From a virus: a stretch of DNA of 64,000 nucleotides. Position numbers and translations under genes: made by a program. The stretch covers positions 62,001 through 126,000 of the IMG/VR virus record IMGVR_UViG_3300009157_000001; one strand, written 5' to 3'. Positions 6,847-62,200 of the stretch are shown here, piece by piece. Numbering within the stretch: position 1 is the stretch's first letter; every line of letters begins with the position of its first letter. Below the pieces are notes generated by a model. That model did not search any database. It was not told the DNA's origin and was given only the letters and a program-made list of their open reading frames with translations.

Positions 6847-7464
6847 TTAGTCAAATTCAATGAGTTTATCAAGAAGATTAATTATAACATTCTGAACAGA
6901 TATAGGAGTTATTACTAACCAGTTAAATAGATCAGGAATCCCTACAACTTTATCAGGAAAATATACTTTCCAGATACTTTGTTCATCAAACCCCTTATCC
7001 ATACACTCCTGGATAATAGTAACCAGGTCTGCTTTTGAGAACAATCTGTCTTTGTAAGGTTCCAATAATGTACAGTGAAAAATGATATCTTCACTAGTTG
7101 TACAAGCTCGGACTTGTCGCAGTATCTTAGTAAAAAGAATCATATCTAGGACAGGGTTGTCTATCTTAGGAAGTTTCTCTAGGAAAAGTTCTGTACATAT
7201 AGTTGACCTAAAGCCTGTATTTATAGATTGATCTATAATCCATCTCCCTTCAGATCTTGAAGTATTCGTTCCCTGTCCAGTACCCTTACCGAACTTTTCT
7301 GTCAAAAGCTTATAAAGAGCTGCTTTGCCATTTCTTTTATACCAAGACCCTCTTGTTAGTCTATATCCTGAGAACTTTACACCGATACTTACTGCTCTAT
7401 ACCCACACTCATAGTATACTGTGTTAAAATACTCTCTTATTCTTTCAGGGGACATGCTTTCCAT
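6847..7464 (-). CDS. Hypothetical 205-aa protein
   Basis: Not recognised. N-terminal basic half with a possible DNA-binding-like stretch (RLTRGSWYKRNGKAALYKLL), C-terminal half helical and hydrophobic (VQNVIINLLDKLIEFD). Overlaps the pyruvyl-transferase-like gene by 28 nt; a second Met four residues in gives a 19-nt overlap. As the last gene of the glycan cassette it may act in that pathway, but nothing in its sequence shows it. Confidence 0.6.
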   Translation of the reverse strand: MESMSPERIREYFNTVYYECGYRAVSIGVKFSGYRLTRGSWYKRNGKAALYKLLTEKFGKGTGQGTNTSRSEGRWIIDQSINTGFRSTICTELFLEKLPKIDNPVLDMILFTKILRQVRACTTSEDIIFHCTLLEPYKDRLFSKADLVTIIQECMDKGFDEQSIWKVYFPDKVVGIPDLFNWLVITPISVQNVIINLLDKLIEFD

Positions 7465-8198
7465 AGGGCTTCCAGATCAATATTCAGGGTAGTATTTTGT
7501 GGTATCTTACCCAGGATATTATCCAGAGTTCTTATATCATGTTTCATATCCAAGGGCTCATAAATCTCATGGCCCACGCTTCTTAGATAATCCCTGAATT
7601 TGGTCCCATCCCCAAGTACTCCTTCTGAGAACTTAACCCACATACAAGGTTTCTCATAGGTATGAGCTACTATAATTCCATGAAGTGAAGAACTGATTAA
7701 CTGCTCACATTCCTGGACCCGGTTTACTACATGTTCTATACCCAAAGTCAGATCAATTACCTGGACTTCTTTCATGTCCCAGTATTTCATCTTAGTCTGT
7801 GCATAATCAATCATATGAGGGATTATCCCGAGTTTATACTTCTTTCCTCCTACTTGCCCAGAATAAAACCTGGGTAGTAAAAGGCAAGGATCTCCATAAA
7901 CCTCAGGACAGTCATGACCAAATCTCATGATTATCTCTCTACTTATAGGTCCTCTTACAGCCTTTATATCTAAAGGTTTCTTTATAAGAGTGTCAGAATA
8001 AGCTATCCCGGCACCCCACACAATACATGATTGAATCATAGGATCATTGAGAAGACTTCCCGTTATCATATACTTAGGTTCATACTCCTGGTTAGACCAG
8101 ACAGCATCAAGACCTGTTATTTGTTTTACTAAATAAGCTGTCAGGTGATCCCCAAAGTTAGGGGACTTATGCCAGTAACAAGGTATTGCTTTGATCAT
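7437..8198 (-). CDS. Polysaccharide pyruvyl transferase family protein
   Basis: The N-terminus has NFGDHLTAYLVKQITG, the classic opening of the polysaccharide pyruvyl transferase family (CsaB-like), followed by VWGAGIAY, VYGDPCLLLP and a C-terminal ISSSLHGIIVAHTY motif. Family members use phosphoenolpyruvate to put ketal pyruvate on sugars of cell-surface polymers. Length (253 aa) is somewhat short for the family. It overlaps a 55-aa gene by ATGA and sits in a cassette with a glycosyltransferase and two methyltransferases, which suggests modification of a surface or virion glycan. Confidence 0.8.
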   Translation of the reverse strand: MIKAIPCYWHKSPNFGDHLTAYLVKQITGLDAVWSNQEYEPKYMITGSLLNDPMIQSCIVWGAGIAYSDTLIKKPLDIKAVRGPISREIIMRFGHDCPEVYGDPCLLLPRFYSGQVGGKKYKLGIIPHMIDYAQTKMKYWDMKEVQVIDLTLGIEHVVNRVQECEQLISSSLHGIIVAHTYEKPCMWVKFSEGVLGDGTKFRDYLRSVGHEIYEPLDMKHDIRTLDNILGKIPQNTTLNIDLEALWKACPLKE

Positions 8199-8362
8199 GT
8201 TTTGCTCATTTTTTCATAAGTAGATATATGAATCTTCAACAGATCCAACCGTCTTTTGAATTCTTTTTTCCTAAATTTGCTCAATGCCAGAAGCATCTTT
8301 ACATCCCCCTGAAATTGGTAAGCAAAAGCCTCTTCTCTATTCTTTGGTACAAGTTTGCTCAT
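8195..8362 (-). CDS. Small basic helical protein (55 aa)
   Basis: A 55-codon frame from ATG 8362 to TGA 8195. It starts 3 nt past the stop of the kinase-like gene, and its stop overlaps the next start as ATGA. The product is helical and Lys/Arg-rich (FRKKEFKRRLDLLKIH in the middle). Its perfect fit in an otherwise empty 168-nt gap argues that it is real. Function unknown. Confidence 0.7.
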   Translation of the reverse strand: MSKLVPKNREEAFAYQFQGDVKMLLALSKFRKKEFKRRLDLLKIHISTYEKMSKT

Positions 8363-8365
8363 AAG

Positions 8366-8824
8366 TTACCTCCATTTTACTTTTCTCATCTTCAGACTCA
8401 TCCCCTTTTCCATAAGGAGATTTCCTGCATAGTCATAACAGACTACATGCCCATTATACATACCAAAGTTATCGTATTTTATATCTGTCAGGAACTCAGG
8501 TAGTTTAGCTGGGTACGGATATATCAAAGGTTTACATTTCTTCATTAGAAGTATTCTACCACACTTAGACATCAAGGTCACCGGGGCAAACCACTTATTG
8601 ATACTCTTTACTTCAGATACCCGGGTCCAGACCTGGTGTTCCATAACATTGGCATTCCAGTTACTCACATCAATCTTAATCACTGTAGTTTTATCAAAGG
8701 GATTCTCAAAGACCCGTCTACTACAACCATACCCTAACATTTCTCCCAGAAAGAAGTCTGCAAATTCCAGGGATACAATCTTGTCACTAAGTATTTGTTC
8801 TATAGCCTCATCTTTAGTAAACAT
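8366..8824 (-). CDS. Compact protein-kinase-like fold protein
   Basis: 152 residues from ATG 8824, which overlaps the upstream stop as TGATG; a start at 8851 would add nine residues. It has the landmarks of a kinase-like fold in order: a glycine loop (LGYGCSRRVFE), a VAIK-like VIKID, a helix-C Glu (NVMEHQVW), a hinge-like ILLMKKCKPL, then TDIKYDNFG and VVCYDYA, which match the catalytic-loop Asn and DFG-like Asp of aminoglycoside-phosphotransferase-type kinases. I recall similar short kinase-like proteins from other phages. The HxD Asp appears as DIK, so activity is uncertain. Substrate unknown. Confidence 0.55.
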   Translation of the reverse strand: MFTKDEAIEQILSDKIVSLEFADFFLGEMLGYGCSRRVFENPFDKTTVIKIDVSNWNANVMEHQVWTRVSEVKSINKWFAPVTLMSKCGRILLMKKCKPLIYPYPAKLPEFLTDIKYDNFGMYNGHVVCYDYAGNLLMEKGMSLKMRKVKWR

Positions 8825-9417
8825 CAGTCTCGGGGCATTATAAAAACACAACCCCTGCGGGCCCCAGTTGCCTGGTGATTAAAATAATGATAGTAATTGT
8901 CTTGTCCATAGATATTATCTATGTGATTCTTAATCCAGGACCACTCATAGACTATTTTCTGATCCGGATAAGTATCATATCCTAAAGTAAGATCATTAGG
9001 GGACTTGAAGTCATGAATAGCAATTATAGGCTTGATTTCTGCCCAAGCTATCTGTTCTAACTCCTTGAGTACCGGGTTTTTATACCAATGAGCATCCAGG
9101 AATATAAGACATGCTCTCTTGGAAAGAGAAGCAAGTACTTTCCCCAAATCCTTAGAAGAATCCCCTTCTACTGTTTGTACATGAGAGAACTCTTTCAGAG
9201 TAGCCCGGGCTATTTTCAGGTATTCCGGATTGGACTCTATAGTTACTACCTTTTCAAAGTTCTGAGCCAACCACTCAGTAGTAACTCCATGATAGGTTCC
9301 AGTTTCAACTACTTCTTTAATCTTGTATTTATCCCTGAGGTTCAGGAATTCATCTTGGAGAAAACTATCTCCATTAAAAGGAAGGGCTTTTGTCATAGTT
9401 TTTATATTTCTTCCCAA
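8824..9417 (-). CDS. Class I SAM-dependent methyltransferase
   Basis: Motif I VVETGTYHGVTTEWLA near residues 35-50, the acidic motif II VVTIESNPEYLKIA, then LIFLDAHW and IIAIHDF are those of a Rossmann-fold methyltransferase of the Methyltransf_24 type, common in sugar- and O-antigen-modifying clusters. It would transfer a methyl group from SAM to an unidentified acceptor. Overlaps the next methyltransferase by 16 nt. The context suggests a glycan substrate. Confidence 0.8.
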   Translation of the reverse strand: MGRNIKTMTKALPFNGDSFLQDEFLNLRDKYKIKEVVETGTYHGVTTEWLAQNFEKVVTIESNPEYLKIARATLKEFSHVQTVEGDSSKDLGKVLASLSKRACLIFLDAHWYKNPVLKELEQIAWAEIKPIIAIHDFKSPNDLTLGYDTYPDQKIVYEWSWIKNHIDNIYGQDNYYHYFNHQATGARRGCVFIMPRD

Positions 9418-10073
9418 TCAGCATCAGGTCTATGAGCATGATAAGGATAATGTTGAAAGTCTACTTTAATCTCTGCATTTGGATCAACCAAAAGGTCTTT
9501 CCTGAGCATATACAGGTTCAGGGCATCATTCTGAAATATGACCTTGTAACCGGTCATCTCGGCAAGTTTGACCCCGGCACTGAAACTGAATCCATAGAAG
9601 TCATCTCCAGAATACTTATGATCGGGATTGTATCTTATAGTCTTACTAAACTCAATAGGAATAGTCCCATTTATTTCACAAACTACCAGATCTGGTTGAT
9701 ACTCAGTTATTACCTCTTTTAGAATATAATAATCATTACCATCCAGATCCAATGACAAGAAAGAGAACTTCTTAGGACAAGAATAGGACCTGAGAGTCTC
9801 TATAATATTGTCTCTAGTAACCCAGAGATTCTTAATCTCTGGGTTACCAAAGTTCTTTCCATCTATAAGAATACTATTGTATCCTTTCTCCATCCTGAAG
9901 TACCTAGTATTAGAGTTACTTTTTCCATCACTGGCTCCTATATCAACAAGGAATTTATCCCCATAACCTATATGACTCAGAATGAAGTCAATATAACCCT
10001 CTTCTCCGGCCTGGCTCCACTTCTTAATCTTAGGGGAAGATCCGATCTTGTTTATCCAGGAATCATCTTTCAT
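9402..10073 (-). CDS. FkbM-like methyltransferase
   Basis: Contains FLVDIGASDGKSNSNTRYF (SAM-binding motif I), SILIDG, and FSFLSLDLDGNDYYILK, the Asp-rich motif of FkbM-type sugar O-methyltransferases. The C-terminus is rich in His/Tyr. Overlaps the glycosyltransferase gene by 4 nt (ATGA). Two methyltransferases next to each other and after a glycosyltransferase suggest sequential decoration of one sugar chain. Confidence 0.75.
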   Translation of the reverse strand: MKDDSWINKIGSSPKIKKWSQAGEEGYIDFILSHIGYGDKFLVDIGASDGKSNSNTRYFRMEKGYNSILIDGKNFGNPEIKNLWVTRDNIIETLRSYSCPKKFSFLSLDLDGNDYYILKEVITEYQPDLVVCEINGTIPIEFSKTIRYNPDHKYSGDDFYGFSFSAGVKLAEMTGYKVIFQNDALNLYMLRKDLLVDPNAEIKVDFQHYPYHAHRPDADWEEI

Positions 10074-11668
10074 ATAGCCAGGATTTTTAGTAGTTCCTTG
10101 ATCCTGCTTTCCCAGGTATGTTTACTATGTACCAGATTACACCCGGTTATGGCTATGTCCTTCCTGAGCTTATCCTGGCCCAGATAGTAGTCTATCTTCT
10201 CACAGAGCTCATCTGTATCCACCCAGGTGTCCAACTCCCATCCTGGTCTGAAATCCTTCTCTAGGCCTGGATAATAGTGGCTCAGACAGAATGCTCCGGA
10301 TCCCATAATTCTAAAGATTCTATCAGAAGAATACCTCTCATAGTTAAAGTGGGAGAAGTTAATAGCAATTTTACATCCTCTATAACAGTCTGCTTCTCCC
10401 TGAATATCATTCATCAGGTTACCTGCTGCAAGAGATGACCAATTACCTCCATATACCCCGAATTTCTCACCATATTTAGTGGCCAGGAGCTTAACCATCT
10501 CAGTTCTAGCTACTGATAGAGGAAACTGAGTATTATAGTTATTACCCAGAAATACTATCTCAGGCCAGGTCTTTTTAGGTTCACCTGCTATAAAGATCTC
10601 ATTATCAAATCCTATTTGTAAATACTGAGATTTTACTCCTAGTCTTTTTATCCTTTCTACATCAGTCTCATTAGAAAAACAAGTAAGATCTACATGTTTA
10701 CCAAGTTCTGCATACCACTTTTGCTGCGGGAACCTGACATCTCCGGACCAGTTAACAAACTGAGTATTAGGACACAAAGATCTCATTGTAATGATAGTCC
10801 CGGGATCCACAATATTAGCAGTCTGAACATGCATAAAGACAAGATTGTACTGATCTGCTTGTTGTGAAGCAATCATCAGTTTTCTTAGTTCAGGAACCTT
10901 TCCCTGATAATCTGTCCATTTAATAAATTTATACTTAGTTGCTATCTTAGCAAATACTTTCTCCAAAGGAGCCTGATCAAATCCTACATGTAGTATCTTC
11001 ATAGATTTCTTTGTTACTGAGCTAGTTACAGTCTGAGTAGTGTTTAGAGAACTTAAGGTACAGGGTTCTACAAAATGATAAGGGCCCGGTACTGTATCTA
11101 TTCCGGATTTATAGTTTCTTACCTTGGATAGATGAAGATGATGAAATATCACATCCTTGGAAGGATTGAGTATCTGATACCCTTGTTCTTTTATTTCCTG
11201 TGCTATCCGATTATCACATCCGGGAACCCCAATACCATAGAAACCAGGTATTTCCTTAATTGGAGACCTGAATATCCACACGTCCTGAGAGTCTTTTCTT
11301 ACATAATGCTTACTTGATCTACTAGACATAATATCCCACCGGGATAATGCATAGCACTGACTATCTGTTATACCCTTAATCTTTTCTATTGCACCTTCTG
11401 ATGGATATAAGTCTGTGTTAGCTATAATCACTATATCTCCATCCTTGGAGATGTGATTACCTACACTGAACATATCCCTGTACCTTATCCGGCCTTCCAT
11501 ATATTCAACCACGAGCTTCTCTGACTTAACAGGAAGCTCACAGTTAGTAAATACATGAACCAGGTCAATTTGAGGATGATTTATTACATTCTGAAGACAG
11601 GTTGTTAGTTCCTCTCTTCTTCTTTCATCCTTTTCCTCATACCATGATAATAAATAGATGACTCTCAT
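10070..11668 (-). CDS. Two-domain glycosyltransferase
   Basis: 532 residues. Residues 1-200 resemble a GT-A-like sugar-nucleotide domain (MRVIYLLSWY; IANTDLYPSEGAI in the DxD position; a late HHLHLSKVR). Residues 225-532 are a GT-B-like domain of the CgeB/Glycos_trans_1 type (MKILHVGFDQAP; FVNWSGDVR; IMGSGAFCLSHYYPGLEKDF; a C-terminal HTWESRIKELL). It probably makes or extends the glycan that the downstream methyltransferases and pyruvyl transferase modify. It is the first gene of the cassette, just after the tRNA-like element. Confidence 0.75.
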   Translation of the reverse strand: MRVIYLLSWYEEKDERRREELTTCLQNVINHPQIDLVHVFTNCELPVKSEKLVVEYMEGRIRYRDMFSVGNHISKDGDIVIIANTDLYPSEGAIEKIKGITDSQCYALSRWDIMSSRSSKHYVRKDSQDVWIFRSPIKEIPGFYGIGVPGCDNRIAQEIKEQGYQILNPSKDVIFHHLHLSKVRNYKSGIDTVPGPYHFVEPCTLSSLNTTQTVTSSVTKKSMKILHVGFDQAPLEKVFAKIATKYKFIKWTDYQGKVPELRKLMIASQQADQYNLVFMHVQTANIVDPGTIITMRSLCPNTQFVNWSGDVRFPQQKWYAELGKHVDLTCFSNETDVERIKRLGVKSQYLQIGFDNEIFIAGEPKKTWPEIVFLGNNYNTQFPLSVARTEMVKLLATKYGEKFGVYGGNWSSLAAGNLMNDIQGEADCYRGCKIAINFSHFNYERYSSDRIFRIMGSGAFCLSHYYPGLEKDFRPGWELDTWVDTDELCEKIDYYLGQDKLRKDIAITGCNLVHSKHTWESRIKELLKILAI

Positions 11669-11671
11669 TGT

Positions 11672-11788
11672 GCGGGGAAGATGGGAATCGAACCCACGTC
11701 CACTTCCTGGTCTAGTCTAGACTGCCAGGTTTAGCATTTGAATAGTTCCGGATATCTCCTTTATCTATTCCCTCTCTGCAACTTCCCC
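11672..11788 (-). ncRNA. tRNA-like or tmRNA-3'-domain-like RNA
   Basis: The minus strand ends in a canonical T-arm (GTGGG TTCGATT CCCAT) followed by acceptor strand CTTCCCC and GCA. A perfect 7-bp partner GGGGAAG lies 110 nt upstream (11782-11788). Between them are GAATAG/CTATTC and CCTGG/CCAGG stems. The block GCTAAACC...GTGGACGTGGGTTCGATTCCC resembles the 3' end of tmRNA. No normal D- or anticodon arm is seen, so this is not an ordinary tRNA. It lies just upstream of the glycosyltransferase start. Confidence 0.55.
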
Positions 11789-12114
11789 TTGGTGAACATG
11801 GTGGGTACTGCCCCCACTGAGTTGATGAATCCTAATACCGGACTCTTGATTGAAGAGACTTATACACCCACACCATTATGTGGAGGGTATTCCCACTCTC
11901 TCCCTTTCCCGGCAGCACTCTTAACTGCCATGGATTTATCCCTGGTTGGTCCCCAGGGCCAGACTTCTATGCCTGGACCATGTTCATAAGATTGGACTAT
12001 TGATAGGCTTGCAAGCTCCAGAGCGATGATCCCTCCTCTACTATTGTCCTTGTTGATTTTTCACAACTAAGTGGGTCCTGAGACAGCTTTCCTGATATCA
12101 ATAATCCAAATTCT
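11789..12114 (-). ncRNA. Hairpin-rich gene-free stretch upstream of tRNA-like element
   Basis: No convincing gene. Local stems: CCCTGG/CCAGGG (11940-11958) whose loop GGTCC can pair with GGACC at 11975-11979, a pseudoknot; ctctt/aagag (11843-11857); gtggg/cccac (11801-11817); ggcag/ctgcc near 11911-11929. Several hairpins plus a pseudoknot before a tRNA-like 3' end is the layout of tmRNA, but I could not find the 5' acceptor half or a tag reading frame ending in ALAA here. It may be one RNA together with 11672-11788. Confidence 0.4.
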
Positions 12115-12447
12115 TCAAATAACTTTGATAATAGGGGTTTCTCCCCTTCTGTAGATATATTCCCTTTTTGGGATAGTTTTCTTCTTAGTTTTGATCCCCA
12201 GTGCTTTCCTTCTGGCATTCTCTTCATTTAAAGCCCAGACTGTTTTATCACCAATTGTGAACTCCATGAGTCCATTACTCATTCTGGTGTGTCTTTGAGC
12301 ATTATAAATCCGGGTCTTTTCCTGCTCAATCATCTGCTCCAGATCCTCATCACTCATCTTTCTCATTCTCTTCTGATTACCTCCTGCAAACATCATCATT
12401 GCTGCTGCCATCAGTCCTGCACTTGATCTCATTGGTTGTTGTGCCAT
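12115..12447 (-). CDS. Hypothetical 110-aa protein
   Basis: N-terminus is Ala/Met-rich (SAGLMAAAMMMFAGG), perhaps a membrane-associated or flexible segment, followed by a basic helical part (RMRKMSDEDLEQMIEQEKTR) and a beta-rich C-terminal half. Met-rich small proteins of this kind are common in phage early regions; function unknown. It is preceded by a TAACTCTAAAAACCAA leader and followed by the structured spacer. Confidence 0.65.
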   Translation of the reverse strand: MAQQPMRSSAGLMAAAMMMFAGGNQKRMRKMSDEDLEQMIEQEKTRIYNAQRHTRMSNGLMEFTIGDKTVWALNEENARRKALGIKTKKKTIPKREYIYRRGETPIIKVI

Positions 12448-22794: not shown

Positions 22795-23424
22795 TTAGAA
22801 TAGTAAAGGTAATAATCTGTCAATTCCTAAAGCAAATCCAATCCCTCCATCATATTGTCCTCCACCACATACTTGTTTGGAGGACCCTAGAGAATCACAG
22901 ATGATCTCAAAGCCCTTACCTTCCTTGTAATAGTCCAAGCCTCGGGTTACCTCATAGTTTATCTTGAATAGATCTAACTGGAAGCTTGTATCAAGTAGTC
23001 TCATTGCAGCTACATGTATTGCATCATACAAATCTGTAGGGTTAAGTATCTCAACTCCTAATTGTGTAAATTGTCTATATCTCCCAGCCTGGGGTTTTTC
23101 ACCTCTAAAACACTCCTGGACATAAAACAACTTCACATTCTTCTGGTCCTTAAAGTAAGTACCTGCTAATTTCTGTATTACTGCAGTATATTCAGGTGCT
23201 AGGCACAAGCCCCGGTCTCCCCGGTCTTTAAAGTTGTACATAAGGTTATTGTTCTCTTCTCCTACTTTACCAGAAAAGGTTCCTTGGTGTTGTATAATAG
23301 GAACTGAGATCTCAGTAAATCCATCTCCGATTAAGAGAGCAACCATTCTTTGGATCATCTCTCTCTTTTTATTACCTAGAAGGATCCTGGTGCCTTTGTA
23401 GCATGTCTCTTTGATTTCTTTCAT
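22795..23424 (-). CDS. Miniature histidyl-tRNA-synthetase-like (class II aaRS) protein
   Basis: 209 residues with the class II catalytic core: motif 1 region (EISVPIIQHQGTF, about 38-50), motif 2 with FRGEKPQAGRYRQFTQLGVE (about 106-125, very close to HisRS), the histidine-specific RGLDYY (161-166) and GGGQYDGG (187-194), and motif 3 GFALGIDRL (196-204). HisRS is ~420 aa. Here the insertion domain between motif 2 and RGLDYY is largely missing and the protein ends at motif 3 with no anticodon-binding domain. It may activate histidine or act on a non-tRNA substrate. The gene directly follows a large structured spacer. Confidence 0.8.
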   Translation of the reverse strand: MKEIKETCYKGTRILLGNKKREMIQRMVALLIGDGFTEISVPIIQHQGTFSGKVGEENNNLMYNFKDRGDRGLCLAPEYTAVIQKLAGTYFKDQKNVKLFYVQECFRGEKPQAGRYRQFTQLGVEILNPTDLYDAIHVAAMRLLDTSFQLDLFKINYEVTRGLDYYKEGKGFEIICDSLGSSKQVCGGGQYDGGIGFALGIDRLLPLLF

Positions 23425-44134: not shown

Positions 44135-45751
44135 ATGGCAACTCCGGTACTGAATAATGGGATTTTCATGCGTGATACAAGCTATCAGGCATCTTCCCAT
44201 ATTGACTCCTATCACCTGGTGAATATGTTGAAGAATGCAGAACCTATGGACTTAGGACCAGTTGACATCTGGGCCATGGCTCAAAAAGTTGAAATGCCTC
44301 TTTATCAACTATCCAGTTTTGGTGGGAAAAATGTCATCATGGTCCAAAATGCCCGTGGTGAGTATAAATGGCAGACTCCTGTTTCTCAGGATCTTCCTTA
44401 CATAATTGAGGACATCGAGCCTACAAACACAACCAAAGGTCAGGATGGTACAACCTGGAAGATAAAACTCAACACTCGTGAGTTTGGTCATGGGGATATC
44501 ATCACTTATGACAAGTATAATGGTTGTGAGCTCTATGTTACTGCAGATGATATCCTGCCCATGGGTGATGGCTTCATCTACACAGTTCAGTTAGTAAACA
44601 ATGACAACTACAAGTTTCTGGACAACAAGTACTTGGCTTGTGGAACCAAATTCTTCCGTAAGGGCTCTGCTCGTGGAGAGTATGGTGAGAGGTTCTCTGA
44701 TATTCAGACTGGTGCAGGTTTCCGTGAATACTACAATTTTGTAGGTGGAGCAGAAGCACACGTGCACTATAGTATATCTTCTCGTGCAGATCTTATGATC
44801 AAAGGAGGACTTAATGCAGATGGTACGGTACCTGTAACTGAGATCTGGAGAAACTTTGACAAAACCATGGATCCATCCATTACTTCCCTGGAAGATATGG
44901 TGAAGAAAATGGGGCCTGGTGCAGTCAAGAATGCTATGAAAAATGGTAGTCTTGGTCGCAGTTTCTTAACTCAGATGGAGGCTAAGCACCTGACCAAGGT
45001 AGCAATGGACATCGAAACCTACTTAATGTGGGGACATGGTGGAAGGATCAAACAAGATGGTCCAGATGACATGCGCCTATCTGTAGGTCTATGGAAACAG
45101 TTAGATAACTCTTTCAAGAGGATCTACAATAAATCTGGGTTCAGCTTAGAACTTTTCCGTGCAGAAATCTTCAATTTTTACAATGGCAAGATTGAGTTCA
45201 AAGGACCCGATCCTAAGAGACAATTGGTTGTACAAACAGGCATGGGAGGAATGAGGTTGGTGAATGAGGCCATCAAGAGAGAAGCAGTAAACTCCGGTCT
45301 GGTTATCCAGGCAGCAGATATTGGGGCAATCACTAACAAGGGAATGAACCTTGGATTTGGATTCTCCTATACAAGCTACATCATCCCATTCCTGGCAAAC
45401 GTGCAGTTTGTACTGAATCCTGCCTTTGATAATGTACACACCAATGATATTGAGAACCCCATCATAGATGGATTCCCATTATCATCTTATAGCTTCATTA
45501 TCTTTGACATCACTGAGAATACCAATGACAACATCTTCTTACTGAAACTCTCCTGGGATAATGCCCTGAAGTGGTTCTATCAAAATGGAACTATGGATTA
45601 TAAAGGCTCTACCCAAGGATTTCAGTCATCTGGACAGTTCAATGGTTACCGTGTGATGATGACTCAGACAATGCCTGCTATCTGGGTAAAGGACCCAACT
45701 AAGGTGTTGAAGATTGTAATGAGGAACCCAATCACTGGTGGTTCGTTCTAA
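44135..45751 (+). CDS. Major capsid protein
   Basis: 538 residues. MATPVLNNGIFMRDTSYQAS and PMDLGPVDIWAMAQKVEMPL at the start, GKIEFKGPDPKRQLVVQTGM and SYTSYIIPFLANVQFVLNPA later, as in the crAss-like capsid protein (HK97 fold). Codon use is the most regular of the window, with an A-rich leader (TAAACAACTAAAAAAACAAG). It is followed by two strong hairpins. Assembles the icosahedral head on the scaffold. Confidence 0.85.
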   Translation: MATPVLNNGIFMRDTSYQASSHIDSYHLVNMLKNAEPMDLGPVDIWAMAQKVEMPLYQLSSFGGKNVIMVQNARGEYKWQTPVSQDLPYIIEDIEPTNTTKGQDGTTWKIKLNTREFGHGDIITYDKYNGCELYVTADDILPMGDGFIYTVQLVNNDNYKFLDNKYLACGTKFFRKGSARGEYGERFSDIQTGAGFREYYNFVGGAEAHVHYSISSRADLMIKGGLNADGTVPVTEIWRNFDKTMDPSITSLEDMVKKMGPGAVKNAMKNGSLGRSFLTQMEAKHLTKVAMDIETYLMWGHGGRIKQDGPDDMRLSVGLWKQLDNSFKRIYNKSGFSLELFRAEIFNFYNGKIEFKGPDPKRQLVVQTGMGGMRLVNEAIKREAVNSGLVIQAADIGAITNKGMNLGFGFSYTSYIIPFLANVQFVLNPAFDNVHTNDIENPIIDGFPLSSYSFIIFDITENTNDNIFLLKLSWDNALKWFYQNGTMDYKGSTQGFQSSGQFNGYRVMMTQTMPAIWVKDPTKVLKIVMRNPITGGSF

Positions 45752-59286: not shown

Positions 59287-62200
59287 ATGGCAGACAAGAT
59301 CCAAAACACCTCCAACAGTGTTACCAGAAGGTTCACCAAAGGACTCTTCCGGGATATTGAGGATTCTCTCCTTACAGACGGGGTATGGACACATGCCAGA
59401 AATGCCATAAATAATTCTAAGACCGGTGATCTGGGATCTCTCGGCAATGAACCTTCTAATACCCTTTGTGCTTCTTCTCCAATACCTCTTGTTATAATTG
59501 GGGTAATTCATCTGGATGGTACTCGTTGGGCAATATTCTCCACGAATGATACCACTTCAGAGATAGGCCTTTTTGATGAGGGAGCTTGTACTTATGTTCA
59601 GGTTGCTGATGATTCTATCGGCGGCTGTCTCAACTTTAAAAAGTCTAATCCTATAATAGGAGTTTCTAGAGAGAATGAAGACTGCACCTGGCAAATTTAT
59701 TGGGATGATGGACTGAACCCATCCCGGACTATGAATTTTGACAAGCCTCCTTTTGTAGAGACTTGTGTCACAGTAAACAATTGTATTACATGTACACCAA
59801 ATCCTCCTGAAGTAGATTGTGATAAGTTAAGACTTGCAAGACTTACAAAAACTCCTTGTCTTAGAGTAGAAAAGGGCCCGGCTGGAGGAACCCTGAGAAA
59901 TGGATCATACTATGCAGTTATTGCCTATACAATAAAGAAGATCCGGGTTACAGACTATTCAGTCCCTTCTAACATACAGTCTTTATTTGACCATGATAAT
60001 GTAGCAGGGTCTCTTGATATTCATATAGACGACGTTGATAAAGAGAATTATGACGAGTTTGAGTTAGTTATAGTAGCCACTGTCAATCAACAGACTGTTG
60101 CTAAAAGACTTGGAGTTTATAATGTCAGACAATCAGTAATTTCCCTGGATCAAATCAAAGAAGATCTTCCTTCAATACCTATCGAACTCATTCCTCTCAG
60201 AACCCCTTTATATGACAAGTCAGATGCTATGTTTGAGGTTGGAGAGTACCTGGTAAGAACCGGTCCAGCAACCAAGCTTGATTTTAATTACCAACCTCTT
60301 GCTAATCAAATAGTCACTAAGTGGGCTTCTGTACAGTATCCTTCAGATTATTATGCTAAAGGAGGGTCTCAGACAAGTTATCTAAGAGATGAAGTGTATT
60401 CTTTTTTTATAAGATGGCTTTATGATACCGGAGACAAGTCACCCTCTTATCATATTCCTGGAAGAGCTCCCAATGCCATTGATATACAGACAGTCGCCGG
60501 TGCTGATGCTCTCATTGAGATTAATGAAGGAATTACCCCATTTAGATGGAGGGTATATAATACAGCAACAGTTACTTCTCTTGTTTCCTCCACTCTTCCT
60601 GATGGAGGGGTTCAGGTAGCAGAAGGATTGATGGGTTACTGGGAATCAACAGAGCTATACCCTGACGATAAAATTCAGATATGGGGAAATCTCTGTGGAC
60701 AACCTATAAGACATCACAGATTTCCTGATAATGGACTGCATCCAAACACCCATCATATAAATCCCGGGGCTACTAGTATAAGAGTGATGGGAGTTAAGTT
60801 TGAGAATGTCCAGATCCCTTTAGACAATCTGGGAAATCCTATCCTTAATATTGTAGGATATGAGATACTTAGGGGATCCAGAGAAGGAAACAAGTCAGTT
60901 ATTGCCAAGGGTATAATTAATAATATGGGACAGTATGCCATTGAAGGAGGTATCACTCCAAGACAAGGATACTATCCCAACTACCCATATAATGATTTAA
61001 GACCTGATCCTTTTTTATCTACTACAGAAACCCAAGGAGGATGTAATCCAGGAACTGAGAACTTTACTCCTCAAGCTTCTTTTTCTAGAGATAGGTTCAC
61101 TTTTCATTCTCCCGATACTCAGTTTAAGAATCCTTTCTTATCTGCTAAAGAAATTAAGGTATATGGAGAACTTAATGGAGTTGTGCAGGGACAATTTACC
61201 CCTCCGGATAAGCATCCTAAACACAAACTTATAACCAATCTTGCATTTCTCGCAGCTTTTATAGGAGGGATAGGAGTAGCAATGCTTGCTTCTAATGGCA
61301 GAAGGACAATAAGGAGATCTGGACCAAGGCCTCTAAATGAAGGAGGATCTGGAGCTTTTGCAGGTCCTGCTGGTATAGGATCTTGGGCTGCACCAGGGGT
61401 GCCCTTTACAGGAATATCTGAGTTGGGAATATCCGGAGTTGCATTCAATGGAGCATACCACGGAGTTTTGGGAGGACTTGATGCAGCTTGGTATAAGTCA
61501 GGAATTGGGGTTTTAGGAGCAGCTGCAGGTACAGGACCGGACCTTGCTTATTATACCCCTTTACAGGCTGCTGGTATCCCGGGTTCTGGAATACCTGGTA
61601 TGCTAGGATACATAACTGATATTGATCAACAAGAAACTGGTCTTACAGCAACTCCCACAATACTTCGTGTATTCAATGCTCTTCCTACTTTTTCTTACTA
61701 TTTAGGAGAAGGAACTGATTCTATCCTTAGAATTATAAGAAACCTGGTACCCTATAGGCAGTATGCTCTTCAGTATACCTCTCAGTGCCTATATGATAGT
61801 TTTCAGATTCCTCAGGCAAATAACCAGAGAAGAACTATAAATGATGCCATTTACATTACTCCTAGTATTCAGGATTTTGGAGGATCTGATAGAATAAACA
61901 ATCTTTACAGAAGTAAGTCAGTCGCACTACAGACCTCTATAACTTTTGCAGATCCTCTTACCCAAGATATAACCAGGCAGAGAGTTGGAGATAATCCAGG
62001 AGGGGTGACTCATGTGAGTCCTCTCTTACCTTTTGCTACTATTTCCAGTTGTCATTACTCTGCCTTAAAGCAGAGGATAAGAAATCAATATGGTCAACTG
62101 GACGGGATACAACAGGTACCTGTATCAGTATGTCCGACTACAGTTTCTCCTTTGATATCCCCAGTATCTGCAACAGGAGTTCTCTTTAATGGAGATACTT

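What the first reader, a model, noticed from the sequence alone, without database searches (positions are those of the whole stretch)
7437..11668. Glycan-decoration cassette in an early phage operon
Glycosyltransferase (two-domain), FkbM-like and Methyltransf_24-type methyltransferases and a polysaccharide pyruvyl transferase are contiguous and overlap by 3-28 nt. Together they could build and cap a methylated, pyruvylated sugar. Phages usually carry single glycosyltransferases; a four-enzyme set suggests modification of host surface polysaccharide during infection (blocking superinfection) or of the virion.
Basis: partly seen in the sequence, partly recalled or inferred. Interest (0 to 1): 0.65.

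Follow-up and report, generated by a model that had tools for sequence, protein, structure and literature searches.

The report
Recurrent phage sugar-decoration gene cassette
A crAss-like phage carries a small set of sugar-transferring, methylating and pyruvate-adding enzymes, and much the same set turns up side by side in unrelated phages, so it looks like a reusable kit for building a capped sugar on some surface, most likely the virus particle or the host cell.

Summary
The four enzymes are real and their reading frames are intact, but they are not contiguous. A kinase-like gene (8366-8851) and a 56-aa ORF (8195-8362) lie between the second methyltransferase and the pyruvyl transferase. The glycosyltransferase is two enzymes in one chain: a GT-A-fold domain (AlphaFold plus Foldseek) and a GT-B-type Glyco_trans_1_2 domain. 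The pyruvyl transferase keeps the three PEP-binding residues known from CsaB.

The record is a 126.6-kb crAss-like phage. The cassette sits in a variable region and was not found in related phages at 64-67% TerL identity. All five catalytic domains have closer relatives in viruses (42-52% identity) than in the bacteria sampled. One viral contig (L325) carries four of them together, another (L335) all five in a row, and 19 independent viral contigs carry at least two linked parts. This is a recurrent phage module, not a recent host transfer.

It probably builds a short O-methylated, pyruvate-capped glycan in the cytosol. The acceptor is not shown. Virion protein is slightly favoured over host surface polysaccharide; DNA modification is unlikely. 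Nearest characterised analogue: chlorovirus A064R/A061L. Phage glycan clusters are known; this defined module with a pyruvyl transferase appears undescribed.

The parts
10070..11668 (-). Two-domain glycosyltransferase. Residues 1-205: GT-A-fold domain of a large virus family. Residues about 221-532: GT-B-type, Glyco_trans_1_2 (CgeB-like).
   Evidence: PF13524 2e-21. N-domain AlphaFold pLDDT 95.4, Foldseek to chondroitin synthase 3.7e-8 and other GT-A enzymes. 196 relatives of the N-domain in IMG/VR. Full-length two-domain homologues L243 and L247 at 38-40% identity.
9402..10073 (-). FkbM-like SAM methyltransferase
   Evidence: PF05050 sub-threshold at 16.4 bits. Viral homologue L442 at 51% identity passes the cut-off. 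Invariant SAM-type motif G46/G50/N55 and D109/D111/D114.
8824..9417 (-). Methyltransf_24-like SAM methyltransferase (TTG start; an in-frame ATG lies 21 nt downstream)
   Evidence: PF13578 at 25.8 of 26.3 bits. Motif E38-T-G-T-x-x-G-x-T-T invariant with viral and cellular homologues. 52% identical to L325.
8366..8851 (-). Kinase-like phage protein inserted between the enzymes; probably not part of the glycan chemistry
   Evidence: phrog_4301 3e-28; relatives in Pseudomonas YuA-like phages and others, next to TerL in Pseudanabaena phage Pan1. Not seen in the other viral cassettes.
8195..8362 (-). 56-aa ORF whose stop overlaps the start of the pyruvyl transferase; function unknown
   Evidence: Translation P0001.
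7437..8198 (-). Polysaccharide pyruvyl transferase (ketal-forming type)
   Evidence: PF04230 2.5e-13. R82 and H173 invariant and K200 nearly invariant in 68 sequences, matched here to CsaB R148/H308/K328, the PEP-site residues in PMC10435577. AlphaFold pLDDT 95.8. Tree: sister to L325.

Best explanation
This is a phage-borne glycan-building and capping module that moves between unrelated phages. Working in the cytosol with host nucleotide sugars, the two GT domains of one protein add two sugars in turn to a glycan or protein acceptor. The two methyltransferases O-methylate those sugars, and the pyruvyl transferase closes the chain with an acidic pyruvate ketal from PEP. The acceptor is most probably a virion protein, so the particle leaves the cell with a short, methylated, negatively charged glycan. 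Shown here: enzyme families, PEP-site residues, GT-A fold of the N-domain, recurrence of the set, viral rather than recent host origin. Inferred: order of reactions, sugars, positions methylated, acceptor, benefit. I put about 0.85 on 'glycan-building and capping module' and about 0.45 on the whole statement with virion protein as acceptor.
For: Enzyme families and residues. Linkage: the full set GTN-GTC-PPT-MT24-Fkb lies in 3.5 kb in L335; GTN-GTC-MT24-PPT in L325; GT-PPT-MT24 in L243; GTN-GTC-Fkb-MT24 in L421, L423/429, L439 and L458; PPT-MT24-Fkb in L344. In all, 19 independent viral contigs have at least two linked parts (beyond the two GT halves alone), all on one strand, ten with at least three. 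Best viral versus best sampled cellular identity: GTC 51 vs 35% (the latter over a short stretch), Fkb 51 vs 29-31%, MT24 52 vs 33%, PPT 50 vs 43%. All five module-linked viral PPTs fall with the window PPT in a virus-only set of nine (support 88), and window+L325 are sisters (96). GTC and Fkb are fused in single ORFs in two Bacteroidota genomes. For virion: no strongly hydrophobic segment in any enzyme, no GtrA and no NDP-sugar epimerase family in the record, and in L335, L442, L458, L422, L439 and L243 the module lies near terminase or next to tail/connector genes.
Against: In this phage the cassette is on the strand opposite to the structural genes, so late co-expression with capsid genes is not suggested here. 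Both methyltransferases fall below Pfam cut-offs. Foldseek of the pyruvyl transferase model against PDB is weak: nothing below E 0.001, Pvg1p at rank 25 with TMq 0.51. A kinase-like gene and a small ORF interrupt the set. The module counts come from scans seeded with the PPT and MT24 profiles. No acceptor, sugar or expression evidence exists.
Confidence: 0.45

Rival explanations
1. Same chemistry, but the acceptor is a host surface glycan (lipid-linked intermediate, LPS or capsule). Capping it with methyl and pyruvate groups hides the receptor and blocks superinfection.
For: The cassette is co-directional with the likely early block. FkbM homologues lie about 4 kb from pyruvyl transferase genes in Flavobacteriaceae loci L105 and L108. 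Cyanophage glycan clusters have been proposed to preempt attachment of other phages (PMC7824862). S-SM2 and LR756500 carry larger clusters with NDP-sugar or KDO-type genes.
Against: No strongly hydrophobic segment in the cassette enzymes, no GtrA flippase. In several other carriers the module is near late genes.
Confidence: 0.35
2. The enzymes hypermodify phage DNA (sugars on hydroxymethylated bases) against restriction.
For: Virus GTs that glycosylate DNA are known (cited in PMC12619734); the N-domain family widespread in phages could in principle act on DNA.
Against: No thymidylate synthase/hydroxymethylase family member in the 126.6-kb record although controls rang. PPT and FkbM relatives sit in or near cellular glycan loci.
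Confidence: 0.05
3. A set of unrelated accessory genes without a joint function, picked up by chance in a variable region.
For: Region 2051-33895 is variable and not shared with G002-G004; a kinase-like gene interrupts the set; PPT and MT24 often occur singly in viruses.
Against: The same combination recurs in unrelated viruses with coherent PPT ancestry; GTC-Fkb fusions. Of 80 loci found through the GT N-domain only one has MT24 or PPT, so the parts are not merely common everywhere.
Confidence: 0.1
4. Recent capture of a host polysaccharide locus, possibly decaying.
For: GTC, FkbM, MT24 and PPT families also exist in Bacteroidota.
Against: Intact frames, GC like the rest of the phage, nearest sampled relatives viral for every domain. 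Cellular sampling was broad for PPT but limited to 296-395 Bacteroidota genomes for the others.
Confidence: 0.05

Closest known systems
Chlorovirus PBCV-1 A064R + A061L (capsid glycan capping)
   Same: Two GT domains in one virus protein plus two methyltransferase activities that finish and O-methylate the end of a glycan (PMC9614988).
   Different: Eukaryotic virus; A064R has its first methyltransferase in the same chain; no pyruvyl transferase; no sequence relationship was tested here; the acceptor there is the major capsid protein, here unknown.
Cyanophage and huge-phage glycan clusters (S-SM2, S-SKS1, LR756500, LR756501)
   Same: Phage-encoded GTs and methyltransferases in one operon. S-SM2 carries an FkbM-like homologue (33%), S-SKS1 and LR756501 the GT N-domain (32-33%), LR756500 a pyruvyl transferase (36%).
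   Different: Mostly larger, with NDP-sugar or KDO-type synthesis genes. The present cassette is compact, without sugar-supply genes.
Serotype-converting gtr cassettes of temperate phages
   Same: Phage genes that alter glycans.
   Different: GtrA membrane flippase not found here; the cassette enzymes lack membrane-type segments.
CsaB/Pvg1p-type ketal pyruvyltransferases
   Same: PF04230, PEP-site R/H/K conserved.
   Different: CsaB equivalog score is far below cut-off (15.6 against 213 bits); acceptor not known.

Membership tests
Polysaccharide pyruvyl transferase (PF04230) | Score over the curated cut-off | tested here: met
   51.0 against 25.3 bits
Polysaccharide pyruvyl transferase (PF04230) | PEP-binding Arg, His, Lys (CsaB R148, H308, K328) | tested here: met
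   R82, H173 invariant and K200 at least 90% conserved in 68 sequences; literature residues. The pairing was made by motif position, not by alignment to CsaB.
Polysaccharide pyruvyl transferase (PF04230) | Fold like Pvg1p (5ax7) | tested here: inconclusive
   5ax7 at rank 25, E 0.064, TMq 0.51
Glyco_trans_1_2 / GT-B type GT (PF13524) | Score over the curated cut-off | tested here: met
   76.9 against 25 bits
GT-A-fold glycosyltransferase (N-domain) | GT-A fold | tested here: met
   Foldseek 3.7e-8 to chondroitin synthase and many other GT-A enzymes, TMq about 0.4-0.62
GT-A-fold glycosyltransferase (N-domain) | DxD metal site | tested here: inconclusive
   N84-x-D86, H177 and H179 invariant in 34 sequences; not a canonical DxD
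FkbM methyltransferase (PF05050) | Score over the curated cut-off | tested here: not met
   16.4 against 22.7 bits. The 51% identical homologue L442 scores 25.0, so it is FkbM-like by relationship only.
Methyltransf_24 (PF13578) | Score over the curated cut-off | tested here: not met
   25.8 against 26.3 bits; SAM motif conserved
gtr serotype-conversion cassette | GtrA flippase and membrane GT | tested here: not met
   No PF04138 in the record; no membrane-type segment by hydropathy
Cyanophage-type LPS/capsule cluster | NDP-sugar synthesis genes beside the GTs | tested here: not met
   No PF01370 epimerase in the record
DNA hypermodification system | Thymidylate-synthase-type hydroxymethylase | tested here: not met
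   No PF00303 in the record, controls rang
A064R/A061L-like virion glycan capping | Glycan on the capsid protein | not testable with these tools
   Needs mass spectrometry of virions
crAss-like phage (the carrier) | Crassvirus major capsid protein and related portal/TerL | tested here: met
   PF23898 1.3e-29; portal and TerL; at least 598 TerL matches in viral contigs

The most novel reading that the evidence does not exclude
A mobile virion-glycosylation cassette shared by unrelated tailed phages of bacteria, working like the chlorovirus A064R/A061L capsid-glycan machinery but ending in a pyruvate ketal, so that these phages, a crAss-like one among them, wear an acidic methylated glycan on their particles.
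Probability: 0.3. Interest if true: 0.75.

Novelty: new variant of a known kind. Interest (0 to 1): 0.52.

Why it matters
It turns one odd operon into a defined, testable module: five catalytic domains that travel together between phage lineages. If it coats virions, it would be a phage counterpart of capsid glycan capping known from giant viruses, with consequences for adsorption and immune recognition of phages. If it acts on the host surface, it would be a compact superinfection-exclusion kit. The widespread GT-A-fold N-domain family (196 relatives in one scan; no Pfam or PHROG match for this member) also gets a fold assignment.

Tried and rejected
Single-protein scans of viral contigs with PPT, GT, MT24 and FkbM found no confirmed relative; only profile scans worked. 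Phage DNA blastn: no match. PPT and GT were not found in 30 TerL-related crAss-like records (many are fragments, and the GT query had no positive control). Reading other crAss-like accessory regions for glycan genes: none seen by eye. PDB sequence searches: no informative hit for PPT, GT or FkbM; weak O-methyltransferase hits for MT24. Crass_capsid search in the other module carriers rang nowhere, control included, so it does not prove they are not crAss-like; TerL of L439 hits the same PHROG as the window TerL. DNA hypermodification was rejected for lack of a hydroxymethylase. No literature on this exact gene set was found in the held library; subscription papers are mostly missing.
Full report
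What is there. The window is positions 62001-126000 of a 126,634-base virus record. The carrier is crAss-like: its capsid protein (44135-45751) matches Crass_capsid at 1.3e-29, portal and terminase match phage head-packaging families, and named portal relatives are crAss-like phages, Cellulophaga phages and, first in the table, Leptolyngbya phage Lbo-JY46. The host is not known. A Bacteroidota host is plausible from the phage group and from lipoprotein-like signal sequences seen by eye, but was not tested.

The cassette. They are not all contiguous: a kinase-like gene (8366-8851, phrog_4301) and a 56-aa ORF (8195-8362) lie between the last two. Downstream come an unknown 205-aa protein, a lipoprotein-like protein, a PcfJ-like and an SRAP-like protein.

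Enzymes. The GT has two domains. The C-terminal one is Glyco_trans_1_2. The N-terminal one had no Pfam or PHROG match, but a profile scan found 196 viral relatives. Its AlphaFold model (pLDDT 95.4) matches GT-A enzymes in PDB down to 3.7e-8. The two halves occur as neighbouring genes or fused in many viruses. The pyruvyl transferase keeps R82, H173 and K200, which by motif position correspond to R148, H308 and K328 of CsaB, the PEP site (PMC10435577). Its fold model is confident, but the PDB match to Pvg1p is weak. Both methyltransferases score below Pfam cut-offs, yet carry conserved SAM motifs; viral homologues of the FkbM-like protein pass the FkbM cut-off.

Where it sits. Compared with three long related phages (TerL 64-66% identical), the genome is collinear except mainly for window 2051-33895, a variable region that holds the cassette. 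The relatives show no glycan genes there by eye, and PPT and GT were not found in 30 related records. The cassette runs with the minus-strand block, against the structural genes. That is the only basis for 'early'.

Recurrence. Profile scans with PPT and MT24, then a search of the fetched loci with all cassette proteins, gave 19 independent viral contigs with at least two linked parts beyond the two GT halves alone. All are on one strand and within 4 kb; ten have at least three parts. L335 has the full set in the order GTN-GTC-PPT-MT24-Fkb. L325 has GTN, GTC, MT24 and PPT, and is the nearest relative of all four (42, 51, 52, 50%). L243 has the fused GT, PPT and MT24 after a tail gene and before a head-tail adaptor. 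Other carriers lie near terminase genes of several families. As a control, of 80 loci found through the GT N-domain, 47 have only the GT pair, 32 the N-domain alone, and one (L243) has MT24 and PPT. So the combination is specific, not a general background of glycan genes. These counts depend on the seeds used and are not a census.

Origin. For each domain the best viral relative beats the best sampled cellular one. In the PPT tree the window groups with L325 (support 96), inside a virus-only set of nine (support 88) that holds all five module-linked viral PPTs. Frames are intact and GC is that of the phage. This argues for an older viral lineage of the module rather than a recent host transfer. 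In two Bacteroidota genomes the GTC-type and FkbM-type domains are fused in one ORF with further methyltransferase domains, which ties those two activities to one glycan.

Mechanism. Inferred: two sugar additions, two O-methylations, one pyruvate ketal, all in the cytosol. No enzyme has a membrane-type segment. The record lacks GtrA and NDP-sugar epimerases, so sugars and carrier must come from the host or the acceptor is soluble. The best-characterised analogue is chlorovirus A064R/A061L, where two GTs and two methyltransferases cap the capsid glycan (PMC9614988). For phages, glycan clusters of cyanophages were proposed to alter host polysaccharide and preempt rival phages (PMC7824862). I lean slightly to virion protein as acceptor because other carriers place the module near late genes. 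In this phage the strand points the other way, so the question is open. DNA modification is unlikely: no hydroxymethylase family member was found, with controls ringing.

Verdict. It is a new variant of a known kind: phage glycan clusters are known, but a compact five-domain module with a pyruvyl transferase, recurring across unrelated phages, was not found described in the held literature.

Noticed in passing
window 11671-12118 (minus strand), directly upstream of the GT gene: A 450-nt stretch without a convincing gene folds unusually well (z -4.5). Its 3' end looks like a tRNA/tmRNA T-arm and acceptor stem (GGGGAAG...GGTTCGATTCCCATCTTCCCC) ending a few bases before the GT start codon; weak tmRNA match, ARAGORN silent, no phage DNA match. 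Could be a degenerate tRNA, an insertion scar or a structured leader.
   Followed up: partly
L005 19522-20000 and L006 1-476 (record about 59520-60480): Reverse-transcriptase-like coding sequence apparently in two ORFs (RVT_1 0.0005), perhaps a diversity-generating or group II type element.
   Followed up: no
window 22795-23424 (minus strand): 209-aa protein resembling the catalytic core of histidyl-tRNA synthetase (2.3e-18), much shorter than the enzyme.
   Followed up: no
L005 16311-16727 (minus strand): ClpS-like adaptor (4.9e-16) with matches in all three compared related phages.
   Followed up: no
L005 15353-15949 (minus strand): GT25-like protein by eye (no Pfam match at 0.01), another possible glycosyltransferase far from the cassette.
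   Followed up: no
IMG/VR loci L243-L322: The GT-A-fold N-domain family (about 200 aa) is widespread in viral contigs; the members tested had no Pfam match, and it often pairs with a Glyco_trans_1_2-type gene.
   Followed up: partly
L239 4562-8371 and L240 4505-7531: Bacteroidota multidomain proteins (1269 and 1008 aa) fusing a Glyco_trans_1_2 domain, one or more methyltransferase domains and an FkbM-like domain.
   Followed up: partly
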